Source of the DNA: Marinomonas sp. SBI8L
Lineage (GTDB): Bacteria > Pseudomonadota > Gammaproteobacteria > Pseudomonadales > Marinomonadaceae
Length of the DNA: 64,000 nucleotides
Assembly (NCBI RefSeq): GCF_001624705.1
Contig: NZ_JSEO01000002.1
Location: forward strand, 124,001 to 188,000
Reading direction: 5' to 3'
Program-made: the position numbers and the translations under genes
Part shown: positions 5,114-58,151 of the stretch, in pieces
Position numbering within the stretch: position 1 is the stretch's first letter
How the letters are laid out: each line of letters begins with the position of its first letter
The notes under the pieces: generated by a model
Told to the model about the DNA's origin: nothing
Databases searched by the model: none
Seen by the model: only the letters and a program-made list of their open reading frames with translations

Positions 5114-5914
5114 TTGGATTTACTTTGGTTACTGCCTCTTGTTTTTGTGCTTGCGTTAATATCGGGTGTTTATTACAAGTTAAACCGTGTGAGCTTGTCA
5201 TTAATCCTTATTCCGGGAATGTTGGGGTTTGAGTCTTTATTGCCGGTAAGTGTTGAAGATTCATTATTAATTTTAATTGCCTCTTGCTTGGCTGCAAGTT
5301 TGCCTTTTTGTGTTTTATCTTTTGTGTCGGCCGCGAAAAATTTTAAAGGGGACTTTGAGGTGGTTCCAAGGTTTGCAACAAGAGTTAGCTTAAGTTCAAT
5401 TTTAATTGCACAAATTTTAGGTATTGTTCCATCAATCTATGTTTACAGCTTCTATTGCATTCTTTTAGCTTTATTTGCAATGTCATTGATTTTAGGTCCA
5501 TACCTTAACAGGGAAAAGTATTTTCAAGAGAGCTTTAGTGGTCGTTTTTGGTATCTTTCGCTACTTTCTTTGCCGTTAGGGGCGGCTGGAATGGAATGGC
5601 GAAAGGTTTTACCTATCAAATCTAATGCAGAAGGGTTTGACTACTTTTTGACCTTAAGCATGTTTGTTGTTTTTCCTGCCTTACTAGGCTTCGTTTTTCC
5701 TGCATTACCAGTTACAGTTTTTGAATCACAGCAATGGCAGCAAAACTGGATGATTGGTTATATATGCTGGCCGCTATCAATTCTAGTATTTTGCGGTTCT
5801 TACATTGGAAATGCTTTGGTTAAAAACACGCAGAACCAAACTGATAAAGCATGGTTGCACTATATACTCGCTCTATTTCTTCTTGCCATCGTAATTAGAA
5901 GTATTATCACTTAG
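5114..5914 (+). CDS. TauE/SafE-like integral membrane protein
   Basis: This is a highly hydrophobic protein of ~266 residues with about eight predicted membrane segments in two halves separated by a short polar loop (LNREKYFQE). That layout, and the GAAGMEWRKV turn at the start of the second half, suggest a divergent TauE/SafE-type anion exporter, but no diagnostic motif is clear. GTG 5099 would also open the frame; TTG 5114 is preferred because GGAG lies 6 bases before it. It sits just after the cheV terminator. Confidence 0.6.
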   Translation: MDLLWLLPLVFVLALISGVYYKLNRVSLSLILIPGMLGFESLLPVSVEDSLLILIASCLAASLPFCVLSFVSAAKNFKGDFEVVPRFATRVSLSSILIAQILGIVPSIYVYSFYCILLALFAMSLILGPYLNREKYFQESFSGRFWYLSLLSLPLGAAGMEWRKVLPIKSNAEGFDYFLTLSMFVVFPALLGFVFPALPVTVFESQQWQQNWMIGYICWPLSILVFCGSYIGNALVKNTQNQTDKAWLHYILALFLLAIVIRSIIT

Positions 5915-52556: not shown

Positions 52557-52729
52557 ATATTTGTTCAGTTTTGGATTGCTGCTAACATCCTCATAGCTAG
52601 AAAGGTCTTCAGTTGATAAGTAACCTTTCTTCAAATTAATTAATCAGATGTGACGTTTTGAGTGCGGTGGATAAATCGGACCAAATGAGCGTGCGCATTA
52701 TTAAGCTGTTATATTCAAAAGGATAAGTT

Positions 52730-52933
52730 GTGCAAAATCATCTGTTAATAGAGTTCGCTAAAAGAAAACCTTTTCAACAAACACCTGAAATGCCTGAGGG
52801 TAGTGAATTTGATCACACTAGAGGAATATGGATGTATGAAAATAAACCATTAGTGAGCCATTCGTCGAAGTTCGGAACACAGGCAACTAAAAAGTGTGAT
52901 ATGGAAACAGGTGAGGATCAGAAAGGAGAATGA
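52730..52933 (+). CDS. Putative graspetide (RiPP) precursor peptide
   Basis: A 67-residue peptide begins at GTG 52730 with AGGATAAG upstream. The N-terminal ~45 residues would be the leader (IEFAKRKPFQQTPEMPEGSEFDH); the last 18 (T50 to E67) are rich in Thr, Asp, Glu and Lys (TKKCDMETGEDQKGE), the acceptor/donor residues for ester or amide macrocyclisation by ATP-grasp ligases. The stop overlaps the ligase start (ATGA). Precursor status is inferred from context and composition; no family match can be checked here. Confidence 0.65.
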   Translation: MQNHLLIEFAKRKPFQQTPEMPEGSEFDHTRGIWMYENKPLVSHSSKFGTQATKKCDMETGEDQKGE

Positions 52934-53862
52934 TTGGAACCTGCCTTATATTATCGAGTATTTACGACTTCTCAGTAGATCTGGTTATTCAAGAGCTAGA
53001 AAAAAGAAATACTGATTACTTGCGAATCAACAAAGAGAATCTCCACAATTATGAAATAAAATTAAATCCTGTAACAAAAGAACTACATATTGCATGTGAA
53101 GGGATAAATAGAACAATAATAAATGTAAAGTCAATTTGGTTTCGACAAGCTGTATTTTTGAGAAATACTCCTGGCGATGCCTTAAGCCTTGAAGAACAGC
53201 TATCTAGATCACAATGGTCAGCTTTTTTAAGAGGTTTAATGGTTTTTGAAGATTCATATTGGATGAATTGGCCTGCAAGTACTTATGCGGCAGAATCAAA
53301 ACCTTATCAATTGATGATTGCATCAGAAGTTGGGTTTAAAGTTCCAGATACAGAGATTGGGAATAGCTTTAGAGATTCAAAGATATTAAACAGCAAAGTT
53401 ATAGTGAAATCCTTAGACACTGTATTACTTCGAGAAGGCGATGACTGTTTGTTTACTTACACCTCTGATGTCGAACCGTCGGAACTTACCAACGATCGAA
53501 TTAGTAGCGCTCCACTAACTGTACAGCAGTATATTCCTGAAAAGACAGATATTAGGGTTACAATTATTGGTGATGACATTTTTGCAGTCAAAATTACATC
53601 TAATGGCGCTGGAATAGAAGATGACTGGAGACTCACAAAAAGAGAGCTTATAGAATATACAGATATTGAATTGCCTATTAATTTGATTGAGAAATGTAGG
53701 AAATACATGAAGAAGCTAAGTTTAAATTTTGGAGCTCTTGATTTTATTGAGAGCAATGGAAACTATTACTTCATTGAAATTAACCCTACAGGCGAATGGG
53801 GCTGGCTTTCTAATGAAGTAAGAAAAATCGAAACATATATTGCAAACGCATTATCACGATGA
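52930..53862 (+). CDS. ATP-grasp peptide ligase, MvdC/MvdD-like (graspetide synthetase)
   Basis: Length 310. An N-terminal pre-grasp part (CLILSSIYDFSVDLV ... IWFRQAVFLRN) is followed by an ATP-grasp fold: KVIVKSL (~156-162, ATP Lys), VQQYIPEKTDIRVTII (~198-213), FGALDFIESNGN and FIEINPTGEWGW (~281-292; Mg ligands E283 and N285). The IWFRQ and SKPYQLMIASEVGFKVPDTEI segments are typical of RiPP ATP-grasp ligases rather than RimK or D-Ala ligase. Ester or amide bond formation on the upstream peptide is inferred. Tight ATGA overlaps tie it to both neighbours. Confidence 0.85.
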   Translation: MIGTCLILSSIYDFSVDLVIQELEKRNTDYLRINKENLHNYEIKLNPVTKELHIACEGINRTIINVKSIWFRQAVFLRNTPGDALSLEEQLSRSQWSAFLRGLMVFEDSYWMNWPASTYAAESKPYQLMIASEVGFKVPDTEIGNSFRDSKILNSKVIVKSLDTVLLREGDDCLFTYTSDVEPSELTNDRISSAPLTVQQYIPEKTDIRVTIIGDDIFAVKITSNGAGIEDDWRLTKRELIEYTDIELPINLIEKCRKYMKKLSLNFGALDFIESNGNYYFIEINPTGEWGWLSNEVRKIETYIANALSR

Positions 53863-54503
53863 AATTAATACAGTTTCTTAAACAACTTCTAAGTACCCTT
53901 TTTCCATTTATTTATCTATATGGCTTAGAAAAAAGAAAGCTTGCTGAAGCTAATGATTGCTTAGCTGAGGCTAATTCTTTCTTTTATGATTTAGATAGAT
54001 CGGTGGTCGAGAGTCGACTAAAAGAAGAGCACTTAAGATCAAAGCTTATCGATGATAAAACTTCAAAATTCAATCTTGGTTTAAGTTTATGCCTGACAAT
54101 AATTGGAGTAGCGGCAACAACGGTTGCTAAATTATTACCTGATCACGAACTAAAACCACTAATAATAGCCTTTTTAAGCATTGCATCTTTATTCATGCTT
54201 ATTGGTGGTTTAGTTTCTTTATCAGCTTTTAAACTGATGCCTACATACGGATATGGAAGTAGGTTTGAGTACCTGAAATCGCGAAATGAAAGGGTAGAAA
54301 CAACTAAAGCCCTCATTGGTCAAGAAAATGTCAACTTGATAAAACAAGTTCGTAATGAAGTTGCATACCAATGCCTAAGAAATGGTTTTGTTAGTCTTTT
54401 TATTGCACTTATAGTTATAAGTTATACATCTGTACTTAATGCATACGTGACATCTCCAAAGGCAATGTCTTTAATCAGCTATTTAAAATGCTTGTTTAGT
54501 TAG
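53859..54503 (+). CDS. Coiled-coil membrane protein of the RiPP cassette
   Basis: 214 residues. A hydrophobic/basic start (FLKQLLSTLFPFIYLYGLE) and a coiled-coil stretch (KLAEANDCLAEANSF ... VESRLKEEHLRS) precede two close membrane helices (~72-93 and ~98-120), a cytoplasmic loop with PTYGYGSRFEYLKSRNER, and a third helix (~176-197). No transporter motif is seen. It overlaps the ligase gene by ATGA, so export, immunity or scaffold function for the modified peptide is possible. Confidence 0.6.
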   Translation: MKLIQFLKQLLSTLFPFIYLYGLEKRKLAEANDCLAEANSFFYDLDRSVVESRLKEEHLRSKLIDDKTSKFNLGLSLCLTIIGVAATTVAKLLPDHELKPLIIAFLSIASLFMLIGGLVSLSAFKLMPTYGYGSRFEYLKSRNERVETTKALIGQENVNLIKQVRNEVAYQCLRNGFVSLFIALIVISYTSVLNAYVTSPKAMSLISYLKCLFS

Positions 54504-54519
54504 CTGGTGATATTTTGAA

Positions 54520-54617
54520 CATAACAAGTCACTTAAAAGGACAAATAACAGTTGGTTTTTGCTCCTTCGTCGCTTATTTTAACCGACTATTATTTGCCTC
54601 TTAGTGAGGCGTTAATA
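54520..54617 (+). mobile_element. Orphan attC-like integron recombination site
   Basis: The left end ATAACAAGTCACTT and the right end AGTGAGGCGTTAA resemble Vibrio-type attC ends. Arms 54529-54555 and 54583-54607 are imperfect inverted repeats (TCACT, AAATAA, AGT-GG in both), differing by extra single bases, as in extrahelical bases of attC. The R-prime box GTTAATA departs from GTTRRRY, so activity is uncertain. It lies 16 bases after the membrane protein gene. No intI is in the window. Confidence 0.75.
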
Positions 54618-54689
54618 CTCATGATGATAAAGTGGCTAATTGATTGCTTCTTTTGCCTTACGAAAGCTAAATTTTTGTATGGACAAATG

Positions 54690-55127: not shown

Positions 55128-55781
55128 ATGGCTCATATCACTATCTTCTCAAAACTGATCCGTACTCTCGATGGATTGTATTCCCTTAATGATCTGCATA
55201 AAGCTTCTGGTTCTGAAAAGAAGCATGAACCAAATCGCTTTATAAGAATTGAAAAAACTCAGTCATTGATAGCTGAAATCGAGCGATACCCAGAAATGGG
55301 CATCGGGGTAAACGCCATTAAAGGTGGCACAAATCAAGGCACTTGGGTCTGCAAAGAACTTGTCTATGCCTACGCTATGTGGATCAGTGCTAAGTTTCAC
55401 CTTCATGTCATTCGTGCATTCGATCGGCTTGCTCTCTCTTCTGATGCGCTTTCTTGCTCTGAGCTTCCTCACTCTAACCAAAACAATGAAGCGACTAAGA
55501 CCATGGCGAAGTTGCTTGAAGGGAATATCTTAGCGTTAGCGCAAAAGCGCTCTCAAAATAATACGCTTGTTGAAAATATCAAAATCGGTGAAGAGGTGAA
55601 TAAGCACCTTGGTGTAAGCAAACTTGATCAGGCAACTCCTGCTCAATTAGAGCAAGGCTTAATCTTCATCCAAACCGCGTTAGAAGGGGAGTACCTAAGC
55701 AGGGCAGACAATCCAACCAACGAATACGTCGCGTCAATGGAACGCAGGGTAGCATTGTTGAAAATAAAAGTACGAATATAG
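55128..55781 (+). CDS. KilA-N domain phage-type protein, 3'-frameshifted
   Basis: The N-terminal KilA-N domain is clear (LYSLNDLHKASGSEKKHEPNRFIR, GTNQGTWVCKELVYAYAMWISAKFHLHVIRAFD). The C-terminal half is helical. At ~55745 a net 13-base insertion relative to copy 2 shifts the frame to the stop at 55781. The ancestral frame would have run to the TAG at 55927-55929, giving the ending AHMYSKVY. KilA-N proteins are phage DNA-binding regulators or anti-repressors. Confidence 0.88.
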   Translation: MAHITIFSKLIRTLDGLYSLNDLHKASGSEKKHEPNRFIRIEKTQSLIAEIERYPEMGIGVNAIKGGTNQGTWVCKELVYAYAMWISAKFHLHVIRAFDRLALSSDALSCSELPHSNQNNEATKTMAKLLEGNILALAQKRSQNNTLVENIKIGEEVNKHLGVSKLDQATPAQLEQGLIFIQTALEGEYLSRADNPTNEYVASMERRVALLKIKVRI

Positions 55782-56028
55782 AATGAAACTCATCCACTCC
55801 CACACCACCGCGATGAAAAGAGACTTCCACGACTCCATCTTCCCAACACTCAAAACAACCAACCACAGATTATACGGCGACGCCCGAGAACACCTAGACA
55901 TCGCACACATGTACAGCAAAGTTTATTAGCGCGGGTGACCAACAAAAACGCCCCAGAAATGGTGGGGCGTTTTGGTTTGATAATAGATAGTTAGGTGCTT
56001 TAATAGACGTCCATTTCATGGCCAGCAA
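55704..56028 (+). repeat. KilA-N 3'-end module, copy 1
   Basis: The KilA-N C-terminal coding tail (NPTNEYVASMERR ... MYSKVY) with terminator 55945-55979 and ~50 further bases (GTTAGGTGCTTTAATAGACG) shared with copy 2. Confidence 0.9.
55945..55979 (+). terminator. Terminator of KilA-N copy 1
   Basis: AAAACGCCCC/GGGGCGTTTT with a 9-base loop; repeated nearly identically in copies 2 and 3. Confidence 0.9.
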
Positions 56029-56263
56029 GCGAAATTATAGCATTATGATTAACAAGTATTCGGTATTTTTGATTTCATTCATACTTAGTTTAGGTTTTAG
56101 TTATTTAATGATTAAAAAGTTTTTTTTAATTTTCATTATTTTTATATCATTAATATATTCGATCATTTTAATACTTCTACCTAGTAGGCTAATGTATAGG
56201 AAAAGCATTATTAATGGTTTGTTTATAGGTTTAATAGCTGGTTTTATATTTATACTATTTTAG
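56018..56263 (+). CDS. Small hydrophobic protein, cargo 1
   Basis: 81 residues from ATG 56018, or 72 from ATG 56045. Three hydrophobic stretches (VFLISFILSLGFSYLMI; FLIFIIFISLIYSIILILL; GLFIGLIAGFIFILF) separated by Lys/Arg, so a three-pass membrane protein. ATG 56018 lies in the repeated module, so the inner start may be the gene's own. Very AT-rich. No family recognised. Confidence 0.6.
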   Translation: MASKRNYSIMINKYSVFLISFILSLGFSYLMIKKFFLIFIIFISLIYSIILILLPSRLMYRKSIINGLFIGLIAGFIFILF

Positions 56264-56284
56264 TCTTTTTATCGGTAACCTTTA

Positions 56285-56599
56285 GCAGACAACCCAACCA
56301 ACGAATACATCGCTTCAATGGAACGCAGAGTGGAGCACTACGAATATAGAATGAAACTCATCCACTCCCACACCACCATAATGAAAAGAGACTTCAATGA
56401 AGTCATCTTCCCAACACTCAAAACAACCAACCACAGATTATACGGCTACGCCCGAGAATACCTACACATCGCACACATGTACAGCAAAGTTTATTAGCGC
56501 GGGTGATCAACAAAAACGCCCCAGAAATAGTGGGGCGTTTTGGTTTGATAATAGAGAGTTAGGTGCTTTAATAGACGCCAATTTCATGGCTAGCCAGTG
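56285..56599 (+). repeat. KilA-N 3'-end module, copy 2
   Basis: The tail of KilA-N remains an open frame (ADNPTNEYIASMERRVEHY ... AHMYSKVY, stop 56495-56497), followed by a terminator and the same ~50-base extension as copy 1. No KilA-N start is attached. Many third-base differences show it has diverged. Confidence 0.92.
56513..56546 (+). terminator. Terminator of KilA-N copy 2
   Basis: AAAACGCCCC/GGGGCGTTTT stem as in copy 1. Confidence 0.88.
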
Positions 56600-56662
56600 A
56601 GTTTTCTAAAAGCACCAACTTATTAAGCTGTGCATCAATAACCAAAAAAAAAGAATTAAAAA

Positions 56663-57073
56663 ATGAACACCTCAACGAATTTGATCATAATGTTTGTACT
56701 GACGGTAATTATTGCTACCGCTAGTATTATTTTTACGAAAGTAAGTACTGAACAATGTTCTTCCTTTAAATATGCAACACTATCCATTGATGAAGTATTG
56801 TTACTTGATGAAGATCGCGTTTTAGTTGGCACTAATTTGTCAATCTTTTGGTCGGATGGTATAGCGGCGGGTATGTGGCTTAACGATGAATTTTTATCAG
56901 GCAACATAAAATCATCAATTAAAACTTATTTTGGAATATCCAATTTAACGGCAATAAGTATTTTAAATAGCGTAGGTAAAGATGGATGGGAAGCTTTTAG
57001 CCATATTCAGAATACTCCTGAAGATAGACAGTTTACCAATGAATGGTATTTCAAAAAGTGTAATGCAGAGTAG
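56663..57073 (+). CDS. Membrane-anchored small protein, cargo 2
   Basis: 136 residues with one N-terminal membrane helix (LIIMFVLTVIIATASIIF) then a soluble domain ending in ILNSVGKDGWEAFSHIQNTPEDRQFTNEWYFKKC, a pattern like the short DUF4177-type beta proteins (GWE, then YFK). Function unknown. It follows KilA-N tail copy 2 and precedes a short tail fragment. Confidence 0.65.
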   Translation: MNTSTNLIIMFVLTVIIATASIIFTKVSTEQCSSFKYATLSIDEVLLLDEDRVLVGTNLSIFWSDGIAAGMWLNDEFLSGNIKSSIKTYFGISNLTAISILNSVGKDGWEAFSHIQNTPEDRQFTNEWYFKKCNAE

Positions 57074-57082
57074 GCATGATTG

Positions 57083-57114
57083 GCGATGAGTACATCGCCT
57101 TATTCGAACGAACG
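57083..57114 (+). repeat. KilA-N tail fragment between cargo genes
   Basis: GATGAGTACATCGCC and the following TCGAACG match the first bases of copy 3 (coding DEYIA.(L/F)ER), a ~30-base scrap of the module. Confidence 0.7.
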
Positions 57115-57143
57115 TAATTTAAAAATACTAGAAGGTTCTAACT

Positions 57144-57620
57144 ATGGGGACAAAAGAAGTCACAGCAATAGCAATTAAATTATTAGCCATCTGGTTGTTA
57201 ATAAACTTAGTGCTTTATATTCCAAGCCTGAGCTTAACTATCAGTTCACTCCAGAGTTACAATGAAAAAATGTTACCGCAAAGCCTCTACTTTGCGATGC
57301 TTGCTTCATCTATTTTCATTGGTTCTCTCGCTTCATACTTATTATTTCGAACATCTAATGCTGTACTTCGCTCACTCCCTGAACCCACTAAAGAAAACAC
57401 AACTGTCATTTCTCAACAGTTTCTCATTCAGCTTGCTGGCGCATTCTTTATTGTCTCAGCACTACAGAGCTTACCCGGAGTAATCATTGCATTAAACAAT
57501 CAAGAGGTAGGTATTTTCTATGTTTTAGGCTCGCTATTTGAGCTAGGAGTTGGGTTATACTTTTTTATCAAACCTACAGTTTGGGTTCATTGGTTTAATA
57601 TACTCAGGGGGCGTGCTTAG
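57144..57620 (+). CDS. Four-helix membrane protein, cargo 3
   Basis: 158 residues with four hydrophobic segments (LLAIWLLINLVLYIPSLSL; LYFAMLASSIFIGSLASYLLF; FLIQLAGAFFIVSALQSLPGVIIAL; FYVLGSLFELGVGLYFFIKP). AAGG precedes the start by ~8 bases. No family recognised. It sits between a KilA-N tail scrap and tail copy 3. Confidence 0.65.
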   Translation: MGTKEVTAIAIKLLAIWLLINLVLYIPSLSLTISSLQSYNEKMLPQSLYFAMLASSIFIGSLASYLLFRTSNAVLRSLPEPTKENTTVISQQFLIQLAGAFFIVSALQSLPGVIIALNNQEVGIFYVLGSLFELGVGLYFFIKPTVWVHWFNILRGRA

Positions 57621-57692
57621 TTTTTTGATATGTCGAAAACCACAAAATAAGTGAAGAGATTAACCGACATTAGGATCAGAGACGTTTGTGTG

Positions 57693-57960
57693 AACAACCC
57701 ATCAAACCGATGAGTACATCGCCTCACTCGAACGCCGCCTCGAAAGCTACGAAACACGGATGAAACTGATGCACTCCCACACCACTATAATGAAAAGAGA
57801 CTTCCAAGACACCATCTTCCCAACACTCAAAACAACCAACCACAGACTATACGGCGACGCCCGAGAACACCTACACGTCGCACACATGTACAGCAAAGTT
57901 TATTAGCGCGGGTGATCAACAAAAACGCCCCAGAAATGGTGGGGCGTTTTGGTTGAGAAG
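57693..57960 (+). repeat. KilA-N 3'-end module, copy 3
   Basis: The open tail DEYIASLERRLESYETRMK ... VAHMYSKVY with stop TAG 57904-57906. It is the most diverged copy in its first part, but nearly identical near the terminator (57922-57955). It ends before the extension seen in copies 1 and 2. Confidence 0.92.
57922..57955 (+). terminator. Terminator of KilA-N copy 3
   Basis: AAAACGCCCC/GGGGCGTTTT with the same loop as copy 1. Confidence 0.9.
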
Positions 57961-58151
57961 GCGTTATTAGTTGCATGTAAAATCAAATTAACTTGAATAG
58001 GTTGATGTAAACGTTTTATTACTCATCTATGAACGATAAGTGAGTCTATTTGTGCTAGACATATACTTTAGTTACTAAGAATTACTTGTTATCCCGTTTG
58101 TCTGAACTGTACATTAATTACTTGATCTCATTCCTATTTAAGGCTACTCAA

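What the first reader, a model, noticed from the sequence alone, without database searches (positions are those of the whole stretch)
52730..54503. Three-gene graspetide-type RiPP cassette with an unassigned membrane protein
The sequence shows a 67-residue peptide with a Thr/Asp/Glu-rich tail, an MvdC/MvdD-like ATP-grasp ligase and a coiled-coil three-helix membrane protein, each overlapping the next by four bases. Established: ATP-grasp ligases of this family form omega-ester or amide rings in an adjacent precursor. Inference: the peptide is the substrate, its C-terminal TKKCDMETGED region is the core, and the membrane protein is a new partner for export, immunity or anchoring. No protease or ABC exporter is present.
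Basis: partly seen in the sequence, partly recalled or inferred. Interest (0 to 1): 0.9.

Follow-up and report, generated by a model that had tools for sequence, protein, structure and literature searches.

The report
Mobile graspetide and membrane-effector module
Three tightly linked genes encode a small peptide, an enzyme that probably ties the peptide's tail into rings, and a membrane protein distantly related to bacterial antiviral effectors; the trio moves as a unit between unrelated bacteria, plasmids and phages and may be an antiviral system controlled by a modified peptide.

Summary
Window 52730-54503 holds a 67-aa peptide gene, an ATP-grasp ligase and a three-helix membrane protein, each overlapping the next by 4 bases. 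Fifteen distinct loci (Pseudomonadota, a Deltaproteobacteria MAG, Bacillota, Bacteroidota) keep the arrangement. The peptide's C-terminal tail, [T/S]KKxDxETGED(Q/L)KG(E/Q), is nearly invariant while its leader drifts; synonymous codons vary, so selection acts on the peptide. The ligase belongs with graspetide synthetases, not RimK. Distant relatives with multi-core precursors carry a homologous membrane protein. Some of these match PycTM, the membrane effector of Pycsar phage defence; the window's own subfamily does so only through this intermediate. The module travels as a sharply bounded 1.83-kb unit: beside attC-like integron sites, as phage morons, and in plasmid regions with Lamassu, Gabija, Dsr1, short-pAgo/SIR2 and Qat genes, or Septu in Pedobacter. 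No exporter or leader peptidase was recognised nearby. Natural knockouts suggest that neither half is toxic alone. Best reading: a mobile, probably antiviral module in which a graspetide controls a membrane effector (0.45). Graspetides are known, as is a membrane partner in thuringinin loci, read there as a transporter. Ring formation, gating and defence are untested.

The parts
52730..52933 (+). 67-aa precursor peptide gene (GTG start); leader residues 1-52 with conserved M..HxL and PxG..YDxxxGxW
   Evidence: H4, L6, G32, W34 invariant in 14 aligned loci; leader mean column identity 0.47 against 0.88 for residues 53-67
52886..52930 (+). predicted core: residues 53-67, TKKCDMETGEDQKGE
   Evidence: K54, K55, D57, E59, T60, G61, E62, D63, K65, G66 invariant in 14 of 14 aligned loci and kept in L024, whose position 64 is L; synonymous codons differ
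52930..53862 (+). graspetide-type ATP-grasp ligase, 310 aa
   Evidence: TIGR04187 2e-54; profile matches AMdnB (7m4s) 2e-48, CdnC (7mgv) 6e-44, ATP grasp ligases 5ig9/5ig8; D271, E283 and N285 invariant in 13 of 13
53859..54503 (+). membrane protein, 214 aa: charged N-terminal region, ExxRxxxIDxK motif before helix 1, three hydrophobic helices (about residues 73-95, 98-123, 172-195)
   Evidence: R60 and K67 invariant in 21 of 21 aligned membrane partners
52698..54528 (+). mobile unit: the stretch shared at DNA level with L001 (96.5%) and, from 52708 to 54527, with L002 (78.3%); flanks unrelated
54522..54615 (+). attC-like recombination site after the stop of the membrane gene
   Evidence: TAACAAG ... 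GGCGTTAA; bottom strand of 54518-54620 folds with z -4.03, though its outer arms do not pair in the predicted fold; 83% identical copy (125 bp) on another contig of the same genome

Best explanation
This is a self-contained mobile module, most likely an antiviral (or anti-mobile-element) system. Shown: a peptide with a nearly invariant C-terminal Thr/Ser-Lys-Asp-Glu tail, a graspetide-type ATP-grasp ligase and a three-helix membrane protein are inherited and transferred together. Inferred: the ligase ties the tail into one or more ester or amide rings; the modified peptide stays in the cell; it acts on its own membrane partner, a PycTM/SLATT-like effector, through the cytosolic ExxRxxxIDxK region and the 50-residue loop between helices 2 and 3. 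When infection is sensed (by ligase or peptide, unknown) the modified peptide triggers the effector, which damages the membrane and stops the infected cell. The graspetide would play the part that a cyclic nucleotide plays in Pycsar.
For: Graspetide chemistry: ligase family and solved relatives; invariant tail with only T/S exchange at the first hydroxyl position. One functional unit: distances of the three proteins correlate at r 0.96-0.98 over 11 loci, which also fits plain joint transfer; DNA homology stops at the unit's edges. Effector-like membrane protein: in the wider family (A7) the PADLOC PycTM model PDLC02364 is reported for 5 of 9 members at E 1 or better (4e-7 L026, 3e-5 L022, 0.007 L016, 0.04 L023; the fifth not itemised); hhalign A7 against 12 PycTM proteins P 4e-5 over 144 columns, score 39 against at most 21 in 40 local shuffles; A1 against A7 P 1e-6 (single comparisons, so E equals P). 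Context: Lamassu LmuA/LmuB, Dsr1 plus Gabija, short pAgo plus SIR2 plus Qat, and Septu PtuA/PtuB near the module. Same-method control: of ORFs of 330 aa or more in the four plasmid regions around the module, 45 scanned, PADLOC at 1e-50 hits at least 8 different defence proteins (Dsr1, seen at 2e-56, would be a ninth); in four distant regions of the same plasmids 44 scanned, two families hit, one ORF each (AbiEii, mad3). Phage-borne in a Mu-like contig (L020) and upstream of a lysis cassette (L024). attC-like sites in window, L001 and L002; integrons are reported as stores of antiphage systems (PMC12409362, passages read). Natural knockouts: ligase split by IS66 with the membrane ORF intact (L015); membrane ORF frameshifted with peptide and ligase intact (L011, L012).
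Against: The window's own membrane subfamily (A1) does not match PycTM directly (E 0.12), and the merged alignment A9, when cropped, did not exceed its shuffle maximum (28.8 against 30.4; uncropped 34.0). No PycTM hit for the four single-core membrane proteins given to PADLOC (window, L006, L009, L024) nor for L017, L018, L019 and L027 of the wider family. The context is not universal: the fourth plasmid region (Martelella) has only AbiE by annotation and a helicase with partial GajB similarity; Halomonas L003 lies between ORFs that look like housekeeping genes (by eye); the window's neighbours show no known defence family in Pfam (not scanned with PADLOC). The sample is small and partly dependent: L009, L011 and L012 share one neighbourhood, L008 and L010 one side; control regions were picked by me, not at random. 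No sensor of infection is evident. The IS66 insertion in L015 may silence the membrane gene, and L011/L012 are one event. No structure could be predicted. No experiment exists.
Confidence: 0.45

Rival explanations
1. A secreted graspetide (antimicrobial or signal) whose membrane partner exports it or gives immunity.
For: Graspetides are mostly discussed as secreted products (recalled); membrane proteins of thuringinin loci were read as transporters (PMC8939145 section 7). In 1 of 14 aligned precursors (Pedobacter L006) a GGG stands right before the core.
Against: No leader peptidase or C39 exporter was recognised in the ORF lists and annotations read (by eye and by product name), and the other 13 aligned precursors have no GG right before the core. 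The core is nearly invariant across phyla, unlike a weapon under diversifying selection. Martelella keeps peptide and ligase intact with a frameshifted membrane gene, so immunity is not needed there. Three helices and 214 aa are small for a peptide exporter (inference).
Confidence: 0.2
2. Toxin-antitoxin-like arrangement: the membrane protein is a standing toxin and the modified peptide keeps it shut; infection removes the peptide and frees the toxin.
For: Same genes, order, mobility and defence context; overlapping genes would secure stoichiometry.
Against: L015 keeps an intact membrane ORF behind a ligase broken by IS66, which a standing toxin should not allow unless the insertion also silences it.
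Confidence: 0.15
3. The membrane protein is only a scaffold or partner subunit needed by the ligase, and the graspetide's target lies elsewhere (for example a phage or host protease).
For: Partner-protein-dependent graspetide synthetases exist (MirC, PMC13097080; abstract, passages and section 7 read); a membrane scaffold was reported for microviridin (only the title of Weiz 2011 seen, in a reference list).
Against: Several known synthetases work alone (recalled). The PycTM-like match of part of the wider family and the defence context are not explained by a scaffold.
Confidence: 0.15

Closest known systems
Graspetides, above all multi-core thuringinin-like groups (Lee groups 3-6 as cited in PMC8939145)
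   Same: MvdC/MvdD-type ATP-grasp ligase next to a precursor with Thr donors and Asp/Glu acceptors; an uncharacterised membrane protein in the loci, mostly without known peptide transporters
   Different: Single core at the very C-terminus, nearly invariant, spelled TKKxDxETGED(Q)KG; sporadic across phyla on mobile elements; homology to the thuringinin membrane protein not tested here (no thuringinin locus obtained)
Pycsar membrane effector PycTM (PF18967) and related SLATT/2TM effectors
   Same: Short membrane protein with a D-x-K motif before helix 1; two members of the wider family match a PADLOC PycTM model over almost the whole domain (L022, L026); found among defence genes
   Different: No nucleotide cyclase in the module; the partner is a peptide and a peptide ligase; the window subfamily reaches PycTM only through the intermediate family
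Partner-protein-dependent graspetides (rosaritide MirC, corallotide; PMC13097080)
   Same: A third protein strictly co-occurring with precursor and synthetase
   Different: Those partners are a PPIase-like protein and a 2OG oxygenase, not a membrane protein

Membership tests
Graspetides (RiPP class) | ATP-grasp ligase of the MvdC/MvdD/TIGR04187 kind | tested here: met
   TIGR04187 2e-54, AMdnB structure profile 2e-48; RimK family 3e-5 (best of the non-graspetide models 1e-5, MptN); scores lie below NCBIfam curated cut-offs, as for a divergent branch
Graspetides (RiPP class) | Adjacent precursor with conserved Thr/Ser donors and Asp/Glu acceptors in a core | tested here: met
   15 of 15 close loci; position 53 is T in 11 and S in 4 (L024 counted); T60, D57, E59, E62 and D63 invariant
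Graspetides (RiPP class) | Side-chain ester or amide rings (loss of 18 Da each) | not testable with these tools
   needs mass spectrometry
Graspetides (RiPP class) | Leader motif Phhx(1,2)h (present in about half of precursors, PMC8939145 section 5, so not strictly defining) | tested here: not met
   the conserved P22 is followed by E/K/S/A/D and then G/D/N, not by hydrophobic residues
Pycsar | Membrane effector of the PycTM family | tested here: inconclusive
   matched by part of the wider family, E 0.12 for the window's subfamily directly
Pycsar | PycC cyclase in the operon | tested here: not met
   the overlapping genes are peptide, ligase and membrane gene; neighbours of L001-L005 were read by eye only
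Integron gene cassette | attC site after the last gene, same orientation, with sharp ends | tested here: met
   for window, L001 and L002: motif, fold and homology boundary. Weak points: no trained attC model was run, only the downstream site of L001 pairs its outer arms fully, and the loose motif also hits by chance inside the L003 ligase
Integron gene cassette | Integron integrase IntI in the host genome | tested here: not met
   only weak sub-cut-off matches (as in 14 of 14 control genomes); a lone cassette without an integrase remains possible
Anti-phage defence system | Protects a host from phage | not testable with these tools
   context only

The most novel reading that the evidence does not exclude
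The module is an immune system in which a ribosomally made, ring-closed peptide replaces the cyclic nucleotide as the switch of a membrane effector: a peptide-gated analogue of Pycsar/CBASS, spread as integron cassettes, plasmid genes and phage morons, with a multi-core branch (LLTKTxxxQExDDD repeats) carrying the same kind of effector.
Probability: 0.33. Interest if true: 0.92.

Novelty: new variant of a known kind. Interest (0 to 1): 0.74.

Why it matters
The biological roles of most graspetides are unknown, and an uncharacterised membrane protein in thuringinin loci has been read as a transporter. A compact mobile trio with a nearly invariant core and an effector-like membrane protein turns that into a direct test: does a graspetide switch an antiviral membrane effector? 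If so, peptides made by the ribosome join nucleotides as internal alarm signals of bacterial immunity. Even if not, a nearly invariant 15-residue tail shared by Pseudomonadota, Bacillota and Bacteroidota needs a conserved target to explain it.

Tried and rejected
RimK-like or amino-acid ligase: rejected by family scores. Tail conserved only because it overlaps the ligase start: rejected, because synonymous codons vary across the tail. Direct homology of the window's membrane protein to PycTM: not significant (E 0.12). Pfam hits of single membrane proteins (AflR, TauE, Claudin_2, DUF2721 and others) were below cut-off or inconsistent between members and were set aside. A solved-structure search of the membrane family gave only a 41-residue stretch of a solute carrier at E 0.03 and a ribosomal protein at 0.27, not credited. 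Viral-contig scans with the window ligase, the window membrane protein and A4 found nothing; A2 gave two loci and A3 one, on a contig already held. A class-wide search with the membrane profile found only the window's own genome (1 of 369). A link to thuringinin cluster 18 could not be tested: no Bacillus locus appeared in the 60 of 92 rows listed. Of the 13 non-own TIGR04187 matches, I gave 10 to a script: 3 (L026-L028) carry the membrane partner, 1 (L029) does not, 6 were not resolved; 3 (L035, L038, L039) were not looked at. A first version of the defence-context comparison mixed PADLOC hits on one side with product names on the other; it was replaced by the same scan on both sides.

Full report
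Observation.

Relatives. A scan of 84,980 species genomes with the window ligase confirmed six relatives: L001 97% (Piscirickettsiaceae MAG), L002 79% (Zhongshania), L003 63% (Halomonas), L004 58% (Deltaproteobacteria MAG), L005 44% (Thermoanaerobacterium) and L006 41% (Pedobacter). In 6 of 6 the peptide gene lies just upstream and a membrane gene just downstream; in L005 the membrane ORF stops at 114 aa near the contig end. Plasmid searches added L008, L009, L010, L011 (with the near-copy L012; CP070278 has the same scores but was not fetched), L013 and L015; viral contigs added L020 (the same contig as L025 and L075) and L024. That makes 15 distinct close loci with the window. All 15 have the peptide; L020 was first found through its peptide, then independently through its ligase. 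The membrane ORF is intact in 13 of 15 (not in L005 and L011).

Peptide. Over 14 aligned loci (A3, without L024) the leader (residues 1-52) has a mean column identity of 0.47 and the tail (53-67) 0.88. K54, K55, D57, E59, T60, G61, E62, D63, Q64, K65 and G66 are invariant, and position 53 is T in 11 and S in 3. L024 reads SKKCDIETGEDLKGE, so Q64 is not absolute. Codons in the tail differ synonymously between loci, so the constraint is on the peptide. The T/S exchange at 53 is what an ester donor would allow (inference). In the Pedobacter precursor a GGG stands right before the core; the others have no GG there.

Ligase. NCBIfam scores: TIGR04187 2e-54, MvdC 2e-44, MvdD 2e-37, grasp-with-spasm 1e-25, MptN 1e-5, RimK family 3e-5, all below the curated cut-offs. 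A profile of 13 ligases finds AMdnB (7m4s, 2e-48), CdnC (7mgv), 5ig9, 5ig8, 9bou and 7drm among solved structures. D271, E283 and N285 are invariant; that these are the metal-binding residues of the ATP-grasp fold is recalled.

Membrane protein. Hydropathy gives helices at about 73-95, 98-123 and 172-195. The N-terminal 72 residues hold 12 K/R (and 11 D/E) and the 121-175 loop 9 K/R, against 1 and 2 in the other loops, which suggests a cytosolic N-terminus and a cytosolic helix 2-3 loop. Alone, no library names it. Distant relatives of the ligase carry multi-core precursors (repeats such as LLTKTxxxQExDDD, or MTKTSEGIDQSE in L027) and, downstream, a similar membrane protein: L016, L017, L018, L019 (Leptospira phage LE1), L022, L023, L026, L027, L028. 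R60 and K67 are the same in 21 of 21 aligned membrane partners. Profile comparison links the two sets (A1 against A4, E 5e-5, probability 68; A1 against A7, E 1e-6, probability 91); these E-values are for one comparison and so equal P-values. The PADLOC PycTM model PDLC02364 is reported for 5 of 9 members of the second set at E 1 or better: 4e-7 (L026), 3e-5 over residues 63-193 (L022), 0.007 (L016), 0.04 (L023) and one not itemised; L017, L018, L019 and L027 have no PycTM hit, nor have the single-core proteins of window, L006, L009 and L024. Against 12 PycTM (PF18967) proteins, A7 gives E 4e-5, probability 69, over 144 columns; 40 local shuffles gave a maximum score of 21 against 39. A1 against PycTM directly gives E 0.12, and the merged set A9 gives 34.0 uncropped but 28.8 cropped, below its shuffle maximum of 30.4. 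The Pedobacter protein hits an RT-associated SLATT model at E 0.02, too weak to count. So kinship to PycTM is an inference in two steps. In plasmids, close homologues of the second-set membrane protein appear in 5 records, each with the multi-core ligase at an adjoining position.

Mobility. DNA homology of the window to L001 is 96.5% over 52698-54528 only, and to L002 78.3% over 52708-54527. Right after the membrane gene, the window (54522-54615), L001 (7593-7704) and L002 (3618-3669) have TAACAA ... GTTA motifs like those of integron attC sites (likeness recalled); L001 has another just upstream of the peptide (5708-5783). Their bottom strands fold better than most shuffles (z -4.0 window, -4.1 L001 downstream, -3.2 L002, -2.2 L001 upstream, the last matched by 5 of 200 shuffles); only the downstream site of L001 pairs its outer arms fully. 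The loose motif also matches inside the L003 ligase and at the end of the L004 membrane gene, so motif alone proves little. A copy of the window site (83% over 125 bp) follows a 782-aa ORF (ATPase-like by eye) on another contig, with partial copies on two more contigs. No integron integrase passes the cut-off in the own genome. L020 lies between a tail-completion gene and a head protease gene of a Mu-like phage; L024 lies upstream of endolysin, spanin and terminase small-subunit genes.

Defence context. Annotation and PADLOC show: L040 (Rhizobium sp. ZX09) LmuA 0.7 kb upstream with LmuB beyond it, and AbiE (by annotation) 0.15 kb downstream; L041 (Agrobacterium) Dsr1 20 bp downstream (convergent) and then GajA/GajB; L042 (R. 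ruizarguesonis) short pAgo with SIR2 (SPARSA-like; name recalled) and Qat genes 4-14 kb downstream; L043 (Martelella) AbiE by annotation and a helicase with partial GajB similarity; L006 (Pedobacter) PtuA/PtuB about 1 kb downstream. Same-method control: ORFs of 330 aa or more were called in the four plasmid regions around the module and in four distant 41-kb regions of the same plasmids, and scanned with PADLOC at 1e-50. Around the module the 45 ORFs give LmuA, LmuB, GajA, GajB, QatA, QatC, a SIR2-APAZ protein and a pAgo, at least 8 proteins (3 of 28 families are not listed; Dsr1, 2e-56, would be a ninth); by the scans and the annotation these lie in 3 of 4 regions. The 44 control ORFs give two families, one ORF each: AbiEii and mad3. 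The L042 region is shorter (32 kb), the control places were picked by me, and the length cut leaves out smaller defence genes on both sides. The regions are not all independent: L009, L011 and L012 share the AbiE side, and L008 and L010 share the integrase side but differ downstream. Not all loci have such a context: L003 lies between ORFs that look like an aminotransferase and a photolyase (by eye), L013 has no annotation, neighbours of L001-L005 were read only as ORF lists, and the window's neighbours were scanned with Pfam but not with PADLOC.

Natural knockouts. In L015 an IS66 element splits the ligase, while peptide and membrane ORF (204 aa) are intact. In L011 and L012, near-copies and so one event, the membrane ORF is in two frames while peptide and ligase are intact. 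Taken together this fits a product that needs both halves, and argues against a pure immunity role and, more weakly, against a standing toxin.

Spread. The membrane profile finds a match in 1 of 369 genomes of the class, the window's own. TIGR04187 at 1e-20 or better is found in 13 of 398 genomes of the phylum, the own one included. The module is rare and patchy.

Literature. Makarova et al. 2022 (PMC8939145; sections 5, 7 and parts 1-2 of 3 of section 6 read) report 'cluster 18' membrane proteins in thuringinin loci and suggest transport; TGED does not occur in the main text. Carter et al. 2026 (PMC13097080; abstract, passages and section 7 read) add 19 groups to the earlier 24, some with proteins matching no Pfam or TIGRFAM model; section 7 describes no membrane partner of this kind, but the supplement was not available and some of these groups could include this trio. 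A link between RiPPs and phage defence has been proposed before from co-expression in ocean metagenomes, with other RiPP classes as examples (PMC11118758, passages read). Searches pairing ATP-grasp with SLATT (1 paper listed, not read), with antiphage and RiPP terms (19 of 19 listed), and with phage defence and abortive infection (15 of 92 listed), and passages of the DefensePredictor paper (PMC13092281), showed me no graspetide-based defence system. The library holds open-access papers only. Chromosomal integrons as stores of defence genes are described in PMC12409362 (passages). Pycsar itself is recalled.

Judgement. Graspetide-type modification of the tail: about 0.85. Role in conflict with phages or other mobile elements: about 0.6. 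Membrane protein as an effector switched on by the modified peptide: about 0.45. Chemistry, trigger and protection are all untested.

Noticed in passing
window 55704-58009: Three copies of a 262-nt repeat (93% and 78% identical to the first), each holding a terminator-like hairpin and preceded by a 47-nt repeat, follow a KilA-N gene (55128-55781) and separate small ORFs; it looks like repeated duplication of a gene end around inserted genes.
   Followed up: partly
L067:3371-5844 (own genome, contig C7): A 782-aa ORF (ATPase-like by eye) is directly followed by a copy of the window's attC-like site (83% over 125 bp), another possible lone cassette.
   Followed up: partly
L016, L017, L018, L019, L022, L023, L026, L028: A multi-core branch of graspetide precursors (LLTKTxxxQExDDD-like repeats) with the same kind of membrane partner, on plasmids and in Leptospira phage LE1.
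   Followed up: partly
L027:1040-3380: A third precursor type with GETVMTKTSEGIDQSE repeats, again with ligase and a 309-aa three-helix membrane protein.
   Followed up: no
L014:3638-8093: A Pedobacter plasmid carries an ATP-grasp ligase with a small acidic ORF near lasso peptide B2 and asparagine-synthase-like genes (names from the annotation).
   Followed up: no
L029 and L039 (same genome, contig C3): Two ATP-grasp ligases in tandem behind a small ORF with PFF and GGG motifs, a microviridin-like pair without the membrane partner.
   Followed up: no
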